From NCBI RefSeq assembly GCF_016463295.1, contig NZ_JAEMRO010000001.1:1-64000 (forward strand): a stretch of 64,000 nucleotides of DNA. The letters are read 5' to 3'. A program made the position numbers and the translations under genes. This DNA comes from Brevundimonas sp. Its GTDB lineage: Bacteria > Pseudomonadota > Alphaproteobacteria > Caulobacterales > Caulobacteraceae. Below, in pieces: positions 22,007-39,572 of this stretch. Numbering within the stretch: position 1 is the first letter of the stretch; each line of letters begins with the position of its first letter. The notes beneath the pieces were generated by a model. That model had not been told where the DNA came from, searched no databases, and worked only from the letters and a program-made list of their open reading frames with translations.

Positions 22007-22034
22007 AAAATAGCAGAAGGACAGAACAAAGCAA
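22007..22034 (-). promoter_or_regulatory. Predicted leaderless promoter of the radical SAM gene
   Basis: On the minus strand, TTGCTT (22034-22029), a 16-base spacer and TATTTT (22012-22007) form a sigma-70-like promoter. Transcription would start at or next to the A of the ATG at 22000. Confidence 0.55.
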
Positions 22035-22038
22035 GAAC
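22024..22038. promoter_or_regulatory. LexA-type SOS box
   Basis: GAAC-AAAGCAA-GAAC, an exact match to the alphaproteobacterial LexA consensus GTTC-N7-GTTC read on the other strand. It covers the -35 of the radical SAM gene and lies about 60 bases before the divergent gene at 22098, so LexA binding could repress either. Confidence 0.7.
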
Positions 22039-22097
22039 ATTTCGGGGTTGGATTGCTACCCACGCCCGGAAGGTGCACCTTGAGTCGAGGGGTACGC

Positions 22098-23123
22098 ATG
22101 AAAAACATACTCATCGTCAGCACGATAGCGGGACTGATTGCGCAGCCAATCGGGTCGCCCCGTGCGCAGGAAGTGGCACCGAGCGCCATAGTCGGTCTGG
22201 CCAATGGATGCAGGCCTGAAGCGGCGTTCGGGTTTAGTATGACCGATCCCTACAATGGAGGTCGTAATTTGCGGCTGCGCGACACAGTTGCTCCCTTTCG
22301 AACCATGGAAGTCATCGCGACTCCCCGGTCCAAAAAGCTCGTTTCCGTAGACGTTTGGGCCTACGCCCCTGACGACGCTGGCACGGTCGAGCAGAGGCGT
22401 GAGGGCGCGACACAGCTGCTTGATGAACTCGACACGCTGGTTGAGGCCTCAGGTCGTTTCGAGAACCGGCGTTTCGACGACGAAACGGAAACCATAATCT
22501 ATTCGGTCCCAGCCGAGGCACCTGAATCCCGGCTTCAGATGGGGCTGTCACAACTGGGCGTGTCTGTGATCGTCTCATGTGCGGATGAGGGGCGACGGCA
22601 ACTGGCCATGGACGAATTGTTAGGGCGCACTCGTGTCGAGCGACCCGTGAAGCCGATTTTGCCGACGCCTGTTCGTTCCAACATACAGGATTGCGCTGAT
22701 CCTGTTCGAGCCGAGGAAATCTACGACAACTTCGAGCTTGGCGGCAGCTTTGACGTCATGAATGTGGCGCGGAGCTTTCAGGATTATTCAGAACACCTGG
22801 CGCAATGGCATGGCCAGATTCTGATGGACAAAGGCGTCTGGACCCAAGCGGATCGTGATGCATTCCAGATGTCGATGCTCAACGATCAAGCTATTCTGAA
22901 AGGGCTGGAACGGCAGCTTTCCAGAGTTCAGTCCATGCTCGAGCTAACACTGGAGATCCCCGGAAAGCGCGAGGCGGGCGATGCTGTTGGGTCCTGCCGT
23001 GCTGTCGTGGGGCTGGTCGACCTGCTTGCGGATATGGACCGTGAGAACGAAGCGCAATGGGCGCTGTCCACCGCTCGTTATCAGGCTGAAGCCTCAAGAT
23101 TGGGCGTTACGTTGGACGAGTAG
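22098..23123 (+). CDS. Secreted protein of unknown function
   Basis: I do not recognise this family. It has 341 residues and begins with a signal peptide (MKNILIVSTIAGLIAQPIG, cleavage probably after SPRAQ). The body shows no enzyme motif. A few cysteines (NGCRPE, VSCADEG, QDCADP, GSCRA) could form disulfides, and the C-terminal third looks helical (LERQLSRVQSMLELTLEI). Base composition is about 55% GC, clearly lower than the neighbours, and codon use is less biased, which suggests late acquisition or weak selection. It is divergent from the radical SAM gene and shares the intergenic LexA-type box with it. Confidence 0.7.
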   Translation: MKNILIVSTIAGLIAQPIGSPRAQEVAPSAIVGLANGCRPEAAFGFSMTDPYNGGRNLRLRDTVAPFRTMEVIATPRSKKLVSVDVWAYAPDDAGTVEQRREGATQLLDELDTLVEASGRFENRRFDDETETIIYSVPAEAPESRLQMGLSQLGVSVIVSCADEGRRQLAMDELLGRTRVERPVKPILPTPVRSNIQDCADPVRAEEIYDNFELGGSFDVMNVARSFQDYSEHLAQWHGQILMDKGVWTQADRDAFQMSMLNDQAILKGLERQLSRVQSMLELTLEIPGKREAGDAVGSCRAVVGLVDLLADMDRENEAQWALSTARYQAEASRLGVTLDE

Positions 23124-33636: not shown

Positions 33637-34934
33637 CCGACGCGACGGTGGGCAAGCCCACGAAGCCGGCCGGGCCGTTTTCGGCCTGGGAGGTCGGGCT
33701 GGCGCTTCGCTATCTGCGGGCCAAGCGCAAGGAAGGTGGGATCGCGATGATCGCCGTCATCTCCTATGTCGCCATCGCCCTGGCCGTTATGGCCCTGATT
33801 GTGGTGATGAGCATCATGGCCGGGTTCCGCTCGACCCTGCTGGACCGGATGCTGTCCTTCAACAGCCATATGTACGTTCAGGGCCAGATCCTGAACTCGC
33901 CAGATCGCGAGGCGGCGCTGGACCGGATCAGAACCGTGCCCGGCGTCATCAGCGCCGCCCCCATGATCGAGGCGCAGAGCCTGGTGCGGGCGGGCGGCAT
34001 GACCACAGGAGCCATCGTCAAGGGCATCCGCCCGGACGACCTGCGTTCGCTCAACTACGTCTATGACAGCCTGGATTCCGAGGCCCACCGCACATTCGGT
34101 CAGGGGGCCTACGGCGGTGACAATATCATCATTGGCCGGGCCCTGGCCGAGGGCATGGGCCTGCGCGTCGGCGACGCCATCACCCTGTATTCCCCGACCG
34201 GGGCCGACAGCGCCTTCGGCAATCTGGGTGGGCTGGAAAAGAGCTATCGGATCGGCGGGCTGTTCACGTCGGGCACGGCGGACTTCGATCGGGCCTTCAT
34301 CTTCATGCCGCAGGAACAGGCACAGCTGTTCTTCGGCAAGGAGGGCGTCTGGGACGTCATCGACGTCAAGGTCGCCAAGCCGGACGAGGTCGGCACCATG
34401 ATCGCGCCCGTGCGCGATGCGGCGGGGGCAGGGGCCTTCGTCACCGATTGGCGCGATCGCCTGGCCGCCTTCTGGGGCGCGCTGAAGGTCGAGCGGGTGG
34501 CGATGTCGATCATCCTCGGTCTCGTGGTCGCCATCGCGGCGCTGAACATCATCTCCGGCATCGTCATGCTGGTGAAGAACAAGACGCGCGACATCGCCAT
34601 CCTGCGGACCATCGGGGCCAGCCAGTCGTCCATGCTGAGGGTCTTCTTCATGGCCGGGGCGACCATAGGCGTGGCGGGCACGATCACGGGCCTGACGCTG
34701 GGGCTGCTGTTCTGCCTGAACATTGGCTCAATCCAGCATTTCCTGGAGATGGTGTTCCAGACCAAGCTGTTCGATGCGGACGTCTATATGCTGGACGCCG
34801 TGCCGGCGCTGGTCGATCCGCTCGACGTATTCTGGGTCACCCTGTGGTCCACCTTCATGTCCTGCATCGCGGGTCTGATCCCGTCCTGGCAGGCGGCCAA
34901 GCTCGATCCGGTGGAGGCCCTGCGCTATGAGTGA
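33633..34934 (+). CDS. Lipoprotein-releasing ABC transporter permease (LolC/LolE type)
   Basis: A 433-residue inner-membrane permease with four helices (first near [20 protein letters not shown], the other three after residue 290) and a large periplasmic domain. The [14 protein letters not shown] start and the [16 protein letters not shown] end are hallmarks. With LolD it extracts outer-membrane lipoproteins and hands them to LolA. Only one permease gene is present, so it probably works as a homodimer, as described for LolF-like systems. Overlaps are four bases with proS and eight with lolD. Confidence 0.95.
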
Positions 34935-35682
34935 GACCTTGACGCAGGACGCTACCATACAGAGCCGTCCACAGGCTTATCCCTCGGGTGCCGTCTTTTC
35001 CGCACGAAATGTGACCCGGACCTATCCGACGGCTTCGGGCGGGCTGACCGTGCTGAAAGGCGTCGATCTGGACATCATGCCGGGCGAGATCGTCGGCCTG
35101 ATCGGCCCATCGGGGTCGGGGAAATCGTCGCTGCTGCATGCTGCGGGCCTGCTGGAGCGGCCGACGTCTGGCGAAATCCGTTTCGAGGGCGAGGATGTCG
35201 GCAACCTGAGTGAGCGCGAGCGGACGCATATCCGCCTGGCCAGTATCGGCTTCGTCTACCAGTTCCACCATTTGCTGCCGGAGTTCGACGCGCGAGACAA
35301 CGTCGCCCTGCCGCTGCGCATCGCCGGTGTGAGCCTGCCGCAGGCCCGCAAGCGGGCAGACGAGGTTCTGACCAGCCTGGGCCTGGGTGAGCGGTTGACG
35401 CATCAGCCGTCGGAGTTGTCGGGCGGAGAGCGTCAGCGCGTTGCCGTCGCCCGTGCCCTGGCCAATCGGCCTCGACTGCTGCTGGCCGACGAGCCGACAG
35501 GCAATCTGGACCCGGCCACCAGCCAGACCGTGTTCGAGGCGCTGCACGATCTGGTCAAACAGACCGGCGTCGGTGCTCTCATCGCGACCCACAACATGGA
35601 ACTGGCCGGACATATGGACCGCGTCTTCGCCCTGAAGGACGGCCATCTGGAAGAGCGTCCGGCACAGAGCCAGACGTACTGA
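34927..35682 (+). CDS. lolD: Lipoprotein-releasing ABC transporter ATPase
   Basis: A 251-residue ATPase of the MacB/LolD group. Walker A is GPSGSGKSS, the Q-loop region is GFVYQFHHLLPEF (with the LolD motif), the signature is LSGGERQRVAVARAL, Walker B is LLLADEPTGNLD, and the switch His is in IATHNMELA. The N-terminal extension of about 25 residues is longer than in E. coli. The coding start overlaps the permease by eight bases, so the two are made together. Confidence 0.96.
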   Translation: MSETLTQDATIQSRPQAYPSGAVFSARNVTRTYPTASGGLTVLKGVDLDIMPGEIVGLIGPSGSGKSSLLHAAGLLERPTSGEIRFEGEDVGNLSERERTHIRLASIGFVYQFHHLLPEFDARDNVALPLRIAGVSLPQARKRADEVLTSLGLGERLTHQPSELSGGERQRVAVARALANRPRLLLADEPTGNLDPATSQTVFEALHDLVKQTGVGALIATHNMELAGHMDRVFALKDGHLEERPAQSQTY

Positions 35683-35697
35683 ACACTTGGACCGAGC

Positions 35698-35814
35698 CTA
35701 TTTCTTGCCCGGCGGTGTGGTGAAGGGCGAACTGCCCACGCTGACGGGCGGCTTGGCCTTTTCGGCCTTCGGTTTGCGGGCTTCCTTGTTGCTGCGGACC
35801 TGACCCTTGGCCAT
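35698..35814 (-). CDS. Small conserved basic protein, 38 residues
   Basis: MAKGQVRSNKEARKPKAEKA at residues 1-20, then a Pro/Ser/Thr-rich end closing in PPGKK. Short proteins starting MAKGQxRSNKExxKPK are found across many Proteobacteria; their function is unknown. The Lys/Arg-rich half suggests RNA or ribosome contact, which is inference. Start at 35814 is chosen since that is where the conserved motif begins; an upstream in-frame ATG at 35883 would add unrelated residues. It converges on lolD with a 15-base gap. Confidence 0.7.
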   Translation of the reverse strand: MAKGQVRSNKEARKPKAEKAKPPVSVGSSPFTTPPGKK

Positions 35815-35905: not shown

Positions 35906-35934
35906 TTGACGAGAACAAAGCCGCAACATAGAAC
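35906..35934 (+). promoter_or_regulatory. Caulobacter-type promoter of the sidA-like gene
   Basis: TTGACG at 35906-35911, a 17-base spacer, then TAGAAC at 35929-35934, which fits TTGACGS-N(10-14)-GCTANAWC almost exactly. The expected transcript start is near 35941, about 25 bases before the ATG at 35967. Confidence 0.65.
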
Positions 35935-35945
35935 ATACAGGCAAC
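35913..35945. promoter_or_regulatory. Two tandem LexA-like boxes over the promoter
   Basis: GAAC-N7-CAAC occurs twice, at 35913-35927 and 35931-35945, 18 bases apart. Each differs from the GAAC-N7-GAAC consensus by one base. The first fills the promoter spacer and the second covers the -10 and start point, the layout expected for SOS repression. Confidence 0.6.
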
Positions 35946-35966
35946 ATTCAATCTGGGGACAAGATT

Positions 35967-36056
35967 ATGGCACGTTGGACGAGGGATATGCTGTCGCTTG
36001 CGTCGTGCGGCGGCTTCGTCTGGATGACTTGGCAGGCCGCGTATCTGATTCAGTGA
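35967..36056 (+). CDS. sidA: SidA-like SOS cell-division inhibitor, 29 residues
   Basis: A 30-codon gene for a 29-residue peptide starting MARWTRDMLSLA and containing CGGFVWMTW at residues 14-22. After a short basic N-terminus nearly the whole chain is one hydrophobic helix with three Trp. SidA of Caulobacter crescentus is also a 29-residue inner-membrane peptide, induced through LexA, that halts division by acting on the FtsW/FtsN step. Here the same size, single helix and LexA-like boxes are seen. GGGGA stands about nine bases before the ATG. The stop is nine bases from the dnaE start. The name rests on likeness, not on a search. Confidence 0.7.
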   Translation: MARWTRDMLSLASCGGFVWMTWQAAYLIQ

Positions 36057-36065
36057 GTCGGTGAG

Positions 36066-39572
<3,507 letters not shown>

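What the first reader, a model, noticed from the sequence alone, without database searches (positions are those of the whole stretch)
35906..36056. SidA-like 29-residue SOS division inhibitor hidden before dnaE
The sequence shows a 29-residue single-helix peptide gene (35967-36056) with a ribosome site, a near-perfect Caulobacter promoter (TTGACG-N17-TAGAAC) and two GAAC-N7-CAAC elements across it. SidA of Caulobacter crescentus is an SOS-induced inner-membrane peptide of exactly 29 residues that blocks division at FtsW/FtsN. Such short genes are missed by most gene finders. The combination of size, helix and LexA-like control is unlikely by chance. Identity with SidA is inferred.
Basis: partly seen in the sequence, partly recalled or inferred. 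Interest (0 to 1): 0.87.

Follow-up and report, generated by a model that had tools for sequence, protein, structure and literature searches.

The report
SOS division inhibitor SidA before dnaE
The 29-amino-acid gene is real and is very probably this Brevundimonas-type bacterium's version of SidA, a known membrane peptide that stops cell division while damaged DNA is repaired, though it scores too low to be named automatically.

Summary
ORF 35967-36056 (+) encodes 29 residues, MARWTRDMLSLASCGGFVWMTWQAAYLIQ. NCBIfam's SidA model matches residues 1-28 (E 2.8e-6) but at 27.2 bits, below its cut-off of 35. In the genus (Brevundimonas) an intact frame was found in 116 of 121 genomes; dnaE follows within 427 nt in 110 of 111 loci examined. 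The frame is under purifying selection: pN/pS 0.35 in frame, 0.65-2.16 in the five others. Two tandem LexA-type operators in a fixed register occur in 101 of 111 loci. The GAAC-N7-CAAC form also stands before recA in 11 of 23 genomes, this one included. All 19 other Caulobacteraceae genera with a match keep it before dnaE; two genera gave no match; outside the family none was found. Size and hydrophobicity alone are not unusual by chance; conservation carries the case. Action on FtsW is inferred from C. crescentus. It is a divergent ortholog of a known inhibitor. Less expected are the sidA-dnaE linkage, with ATGA overlap in some species, and the imperfect tandem operators.

The parts
35906..35934 (+). 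promoter TTGACG-N17-TAGAAC
   Evidence: TTGAC-N18-TANA found in 91 of 111 loci
35913..35927 (+). first LexA-type operator GAACAAAGCCGCAAC, between -35 and -10
   Evidence: same register in 101 of 111 loci
35931..35945 (+). second LexA-type operator GAACATACAGGCAAC, overlapping the -10
   Evidence: GAAC-N7-CAAC also upstream of recA in 11 of 23 genomes
35955..35959 (+). Shine-Dalgarno-like GGGGA
   Evidence: a purine-rich core within -20..-4 in 111 of 111 loci
35967..36056 (+). sidA ortholog, 29 aa
36066..39572 (+). dnaE, DNA polymerase III alpha subunit, 9 nt after sidA; likely same transcript (inferred)
   Evidence: no terminator-like site found between 35683 and 36200
34927..35682 (+). lolD-like ABC ATPase gene upstream (neighbour, not part of the unit)

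Best explanation
The gene is the sidA ortholog of this Brevundimonas-type bacterium. Shown by sequence: a conserved, selected 29-residue frame with a basic N-terminus and a hydrophobic stretch, placed before dnaE, under a promoter covered by two tandem LexA-type operators. Inferred: LexA holds the promoter shut; after DNA damage RecA triggers LexA self-cleavage, the peptide is made, enters the inner membrane as one helix with its N-terminus inside, binds FtsW and holds FtsW/FtsI/FtsN in an inactive state, so septum synthesis waits for repair. Because dnaE follows within 9 nt, derepression probably also carries transcription into dnaE.
For: SidA profile match. Frame intact in 116 of 121 genus genomes. 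pN/pS 0.35 in frame against 1.10, 2.16, 0.89, 0.65 and 2.15 in the other five. dnaE downstream in 110 of 111 genus loci, 30 of 30 best-scoring family loci and 19 of 19 other genera fetched. Tandem operators in 101 of 111; the same variant half-site at recA in 11 of 23 genomes. LexA residues from GVSPSF to RALEV identical in 7 of 7 genomes compared, with strict boxes before lexA in 7 of 7. FtsW residues A31, F145 and A246, where C. crescentus suppressors map (PMC4211646, passages), are conserved in two g22 and two genus genomes; in the window's own genome only A246 is readable, and it is A. A 31-residue relative is predicted as one helix, residues 3-30, mean pLDDT 91.8.
Against: Score below NF033228's curated cut-off (27.2 against 35). 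Lowest Kyte-Doolittle 19-residue mean of all 111 loci (1.01; median 1.54), so membrane insertion is less certain here than elsewhere. Both operators depart from strict GAAC-N7-GAAC, and of the nine double-CAAC genomes whose recA was read only the window's has CAAC at recA. At the loose E <= 10 used the model also rings in 9 of 14 control genomes, so those hits count only together with their place before dnaE. No expression or phenotype data. Own FtsW lacks its N-terminal half in the assembly.
Confidence: 0.91

Rival explanations
1. The short frame is a leader peptide whose translation controls dnaE, and not a division inhibitor.
For: 9-nt gap here; dnaE ATG overlaps the sidA stop as ATGA in 16 of 28 short-gap loci.
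Against: The gap runs to 427 nt; in one genome dnaE is not within 12 kb downstream. The residues, not only the frame, are conserved, and the C. crescentus counterpart is an experimentally proven inhibitor (PMC4211646, passages).
Confidence: 0.05
2. It is a sidA ortholog that is weakened or being lost in this species: less hydrophobic, with both operators imperfect.
For: Lowest hydrophobicity of 111 loci; double CAAC in only 11 of 111 loci.
Against: Frame intact; nearest relative L084 differs by 6 synonymous and 2 nonsynonymous changes over 28 codons; GAAC-N7-CAAC also at recA in this genome.
Confidence: 0.08
3. Another kind of SOS-induced membrane peptide (TisB- or DinQ-like, depolarising the membrane) that happens to resemble SidA.
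For: Same general type: short, one helix, SOS-controlled (recalled for TisB; DinQ from the abstract start listed).
Against: Specific profile match and position.
Confidence: 0.02
4. A chance open frame.
For: Frames of this size arise in half of shuffles (1008 of 2000).
Against: Conservation and pN/pS.
Confidence: 0.005

Closest known systems
SidA of Caulobacter crescentus (CCNA_02004, PMC10769358 passage; NCBIfam NF033228)
   Same: 29 residues (PMC4211646), before dnaE in family proxies, LexA-type control; FtsW suppressor positions conserved
   Different: 41-45% identity to four family proxies (no C. crescentus record aligned); below the NCBIfam cut-off; less hydrophobic; GAAC-N7-CAAC operators
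DidA of C. crescentus
   Same: DNA-damage-induced small membrane inhibitor of FtsW/I/N (PMC4211646, passages)
   Different: SOS-independent, driven by DriD, binds FtsN; no sequence test made here
YneA (Bacillus subtilis), SosA (Staphylococcus aureus), ChiZ (Mycobacterium)
   Same: damage-induced membrane division inhibitors; YneA acts at FtsW (PMC13396833, abstract start and passages)
   Different: larger proteins with extra parts outside the membrane helix (LysM domain or extended region); no relation by sequence claimed or tested
SulA of Escherichia coli
   Same: SOS-induced division inhibitor (PMC4211646)
   Different: blocks Z-ring formation (PMC13396833 passage); not a membrane peptide (recalled)

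Membership tests
SidA (by descent and place) | profile match over the whole peptide | tested here: met
   NF033228 positions 1-28 of 29, E 2.8e-6
NCBIfam NF033228 equivalog (formal) | score above the curated cut-off of 35 bits | tested here: not met
   27.2 bits. Only 1 of 121 genus genomes passes (one more, G202), against 118 of 199 in the family sample; the cut-off under-calls this genus, so formal membership of the model is not claimed
SidA (by descent and place) | conserved position before dnaE | tested here: met
   110 of 111 genus loci; 19 of 19 other genera with a match; two genera had no match
SidA (by descent and place) | protein-coding selection | tested here: met
   pN/pS 0.35 in frame against 0.65-2.16 in five other frames, summed over pairs, not corrected for relatedness
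SidA (by descent and place) | LexA control | tested here: inconclusive
   tandem operators in register, same variant at recA; binding and induction not testable here
SidA (by descent and place) | single inner-membrane helix | tested here: inconclusive
   helix predicted for a 31-aa relative; the window's peptide has the lowest hydrophobicity of 111
SidA (by descent and place) | binds FtsW and blocks division | not testable with these tools
   only suppressor positions of FtsW could be checked

The most novel reading that the evidence does not exclude
Across Caulobacteraceae, sidA and dnaE form one LexA-controlled unit: in the short-gap lineages (7-9 nt, or ATGA overlap) the replicative polymerase alpha subunit is made partly from an SOS promoter and translationally coupled to the division inhibitor. 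Damage would then raise DNA polymerase III at the same moment that division stops.
Probability: 0.3. Interest if true: 0.6.

Novelty: new member of a known kind. Interest (0 to 1): 0.4.

Why it matters
It shows that the SidA gene is spread through Caulobacteraceae and not only Caulobacter, that the present model's cut-off misses nearly all of one large genus, and which residues are kept across the family (S13 and V18 in all of 27 aligned sequences; R6, F17, W19 and M20 in at least 90%), a guide for mapping the SidA-FtsW contact. The steady linkage to dnaE and the tandem imperfect operators make a testable proposal that the replicative polymerase is tied to the SOS response in these bacteria.

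Tried and rejected
Chance-ORF explanation: rejected on conservation. A changed LexA specificity as the cause of the CAAC half-sites: LexA from GVSPSF to RALEV is identical in 7 of 7 genomes (two positions before it vary, R/K and Q/K/R) and lexA keeps strict boxes in 7 of 7. CAAC occurs at recA in species whose second sidA box is strict, and eight of nine double-CAAC genomes read have a strict recA box, so a tolerated half-site fits better than a shifted repressor. Genome-wide counts of the patterns (84 strict, control 39; 58 variant, control 28) are too noisy to define a regulon. Mobile origin: no relative by these searches in viral contigs, plasmids or phages. Spread beyond the family: 31 of 150 order genomes matched at E <= 0.01, all listed as family f1; 3 of 289 class genomes at E <= 0.001, all the same genus. 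Those two searches used profile A2, which contains the window's own peptide, so its self-score means nothing. I assumed that the 356-aa ORF at 22053 behind a LexA-like box was RecA and spent a genome search on it; it matches no NCBIfam family, and recA was then found on another contig. One search had 12 loci in the wrong orientation, put right; one search failed on a motif and was redone. Row L078 of alignment A1 carries two extra leading residues.

Papers not held: Modell 2011 and da Rocha 2008; what is said of them is second-hand. I saw passages, not whole texts, of PMC4211646, PMC12700426, PMC13384398, PMC9578287, PMC4117421, PMC13396833, PMC1839093, PMC10769358 and PMC8102061, and otherwise search listings. 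No paper on sidA in Brevundimonas was recognised in the listings (36 papers, 20 listed; none; 39 papers, 15 listed); of these I opened PMC13384398, PMC13396833, PMC4211646, PMC12700426 and PMC4117421, and of PMC13384398 saw 12 of 26 places.

Full report
Observation. The peptide is MARWTRDMLSLASCGGFVWMTWQAAYLIQ. The neighbours are dnaE 36066-39572, a lolD-like gene and a lolC/E-like gene.

Is it more than chance? Size and hydrophobicity alone are not: 1008 of 2000 dinucleotide shuffles of the 383-nt intergenic stretch hold an ATG frame of 25-35 aa, and 236 of 2000 one as hydrophobic. Single boxes are not either (5 in the window, reached by 12 of 100 shuffles). The pair in its register is: 1 of 20000 mononucleotide shuffles of 284 nt reaches its score. 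Conservation settles the rest. The NCBIfam SidA model finds the peptide at E 2.8e-6, 27.2 bits, under its cut-off of 35. In 121 genomes of the genus, 115 have a match at E <= 10, only 1 over the cut-off; at that loose limit 9 of 14 control genomes ring too, so I relied on the place and not on the count. I fetched the locus from 109 other genomes (110 loci, one genome giving two) and with the window examined 111: all 111 begin with ATG and run 29 (64), 30 (12) or 31 (35) codons, and dnaE follows in 110, at a projected gap of 1-427 nt.

The other 11 genomes were checked through dnaE: its start was found in 7, of which 6 carry a SidA-like frame with tandem boxes and 1 (G111) a frame that looks shifted; in 4 no dnaE start was found. 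Thus 116 of 121 genomes have an intact frame. Over 101 distinct sequences (28 codons, pairs with at most 25 differences, not corrected for relatedness) pN/pS is 0.35 in this frame, 1.10 and 2.16 in the other forward frames, and 0.89, 0.65 and 2.15 on the other strand.

Regulation. TTGAC-N18-TANA is present in 91 of 111 loci; many of the other 20 read TTGC or have a different spacing, and one is cut by its contig end. In 101 of 111 loci four half-sites stand in one register, GAAC-N7-NAA(C/T)-N3-GAAC-N7-NAAC: 43 GAAC/GAAC, 38 CAAC/GAAC, 11 CAAC/CAAC including the window, 9 other; 10 do not fit. At least one strict box lies within 200 nt in 97 of 111. C. crescentus LexA has the motif GTTC-N7-GTTC, and about 97% of its SOS promoters carry a single box (PMC12700426, passages). 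The CAAC half-site looks like a working variant: the box upstream of recA is GAAC-N7-CAAC in 11 of 23 genomes, the window's own among them, and GAAC-N7-GAAC in the other 12, 92-117 nt before the start (25 genomes were asked, recA was found in 23). The two genes do not go together, though: of nine double-CAAC sidA genomes whose recA was read, eight have a strict recA box. LexA from GVSPSF to RALEV is the same in 7 of 7 genomes. The window's nearest sidA relatives (L084, L098, L108) and the loci nearest in DnaE (L111, 88%; L078, 86%) keep a strict second box, while the other ten double-CAAC loci are at 71-74% DnaE identity, so the window's double CAAC probably arose on its own (inference).

Family view. 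A family sample gives matches in 166 of 199 genomes and 20 of 22 genera at E <= 0.05, 118 over the cut-off; 3 of 14 controls ring at that limit. Some misses are false, since G010, G077, G094 and G110 carry the frame; the two genera without a match (g16, g17) were not followed up. One locus from each of the 19 other genera with a match has sidA before dnaE with projected gap -5 to 102 nt, as do 30 of 30 best-scoring family loci. Outside the family none was found: in the order sample 31 of 150 matched at E <= 0.01, all f1; in the class sample 3 of 289 at E <= 0.001, all the same genus. No relative was found in viral contigs, plasmids or phages.

Mechanism. In C. crescentus SidA is a 29-residue inner-membrane protein that binds FtsW (and FtsN in two-hybrid) and is thought to hold FtsW/I/N inactive; FtsW(F145L) and (A246T) suppress it (PMC4211646, passages). 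The equivalents of A31, F145 and A246 are unchanged in two g22 genomes (taken as Caulobacter-like, unnamed) and two genus genomes; the window's genome holds only the C-terminal part of FtsW, with A246 present. AlphaFold2 gives a single helix for a 31-residue relative (the tool's 30-residue minimum excluded the window's own peptide). R3 and R6 suggest N-in topology (inference from the positive-inside rule). Against: the window's peptide is the least hydrophobic of the 111, so insertion should be tested.

Link with dnaE. Of 110 loci, the projected gap is at most 20 nt in 28, 21-100 in 36 and over 100 in 46. In 16 of the 28 short-gap loci, not the window's, an in-frame dnaE ATG overlaps the sidA stop as ATGA. 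No terminator-like site and no consensus promoter was found between 35683 and 36200 on a simple scan, which also misses the sidA promoter, so it says little. In long-gap species a block recurs before dnaE (GATGTGAGAC in 21 of 46, starting 28-59 nt before the projected dnaE start) and may be a promoter of its own. Whether dnaE rises in the SOS response was not found in the papers searched and passages read; supplementary tables were not available.

Verdict. A real, conserved gene; a divergent ortholog of a known inhibitor.

Noticed in passing
22024-22038 (+) and ORF 22098-23123 (+): Strict LexA-type box GAACAAAGCAAGAAC before a secreted-looking 341-aa protein with no Pfam match at E <= 0.01 and none in NCBIfam for the longer frame (sequence); 1 of 25 genus genomes (its own) matches at E <= 1e-60. 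Possible species-specific SOS gene.
   Followed up: partly
35698-35814 (-): Small basic 38-aa frame MAKGQVRSNKEARKPKAEKAKPPVSVGSSPFTTPPGKK, divergent from sidA; no family match.
   Followed up: partly
L312 (own recA) and 22 other recA loci: recA carries GAAC-N7-CAAC in 11 of 23 genomes and GAAC-N7-GAAC in 12 of 23, pointing to a tolerated LexA half-site variant.
   Followed up: yes
L292 (genome G141): A second SidA-like frame of 37 aa, with no dnaE found in the stretch and no LexA-type box in the 85 nt shown; E 9.6e-6 with NF033228. Possible paralog.
   Followed up: no
L179 (genome G111): sidA frame before dnaE looks shifted, with one strict LexA-type box kept; a real loss or an assembly error.
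   Followed up: no
L020, L275 (genome G072): sidA present with its promoter, but dnaE not within 12 kb downstream.
   Followed up: partly
long-gap loci with more than 100 nt between sidA and dnaE: A recurrent block before dnaE (GATGTGAGAC in 21 of 46 loci), perhaps a separate dnaE promoter.
   Followed up: no
G005:C128 and G005:C138 (L048, L059): One incomplete genome (66%) holds two different sidA-dnaE loci, probably a mixed assembly.
   Followed up: no
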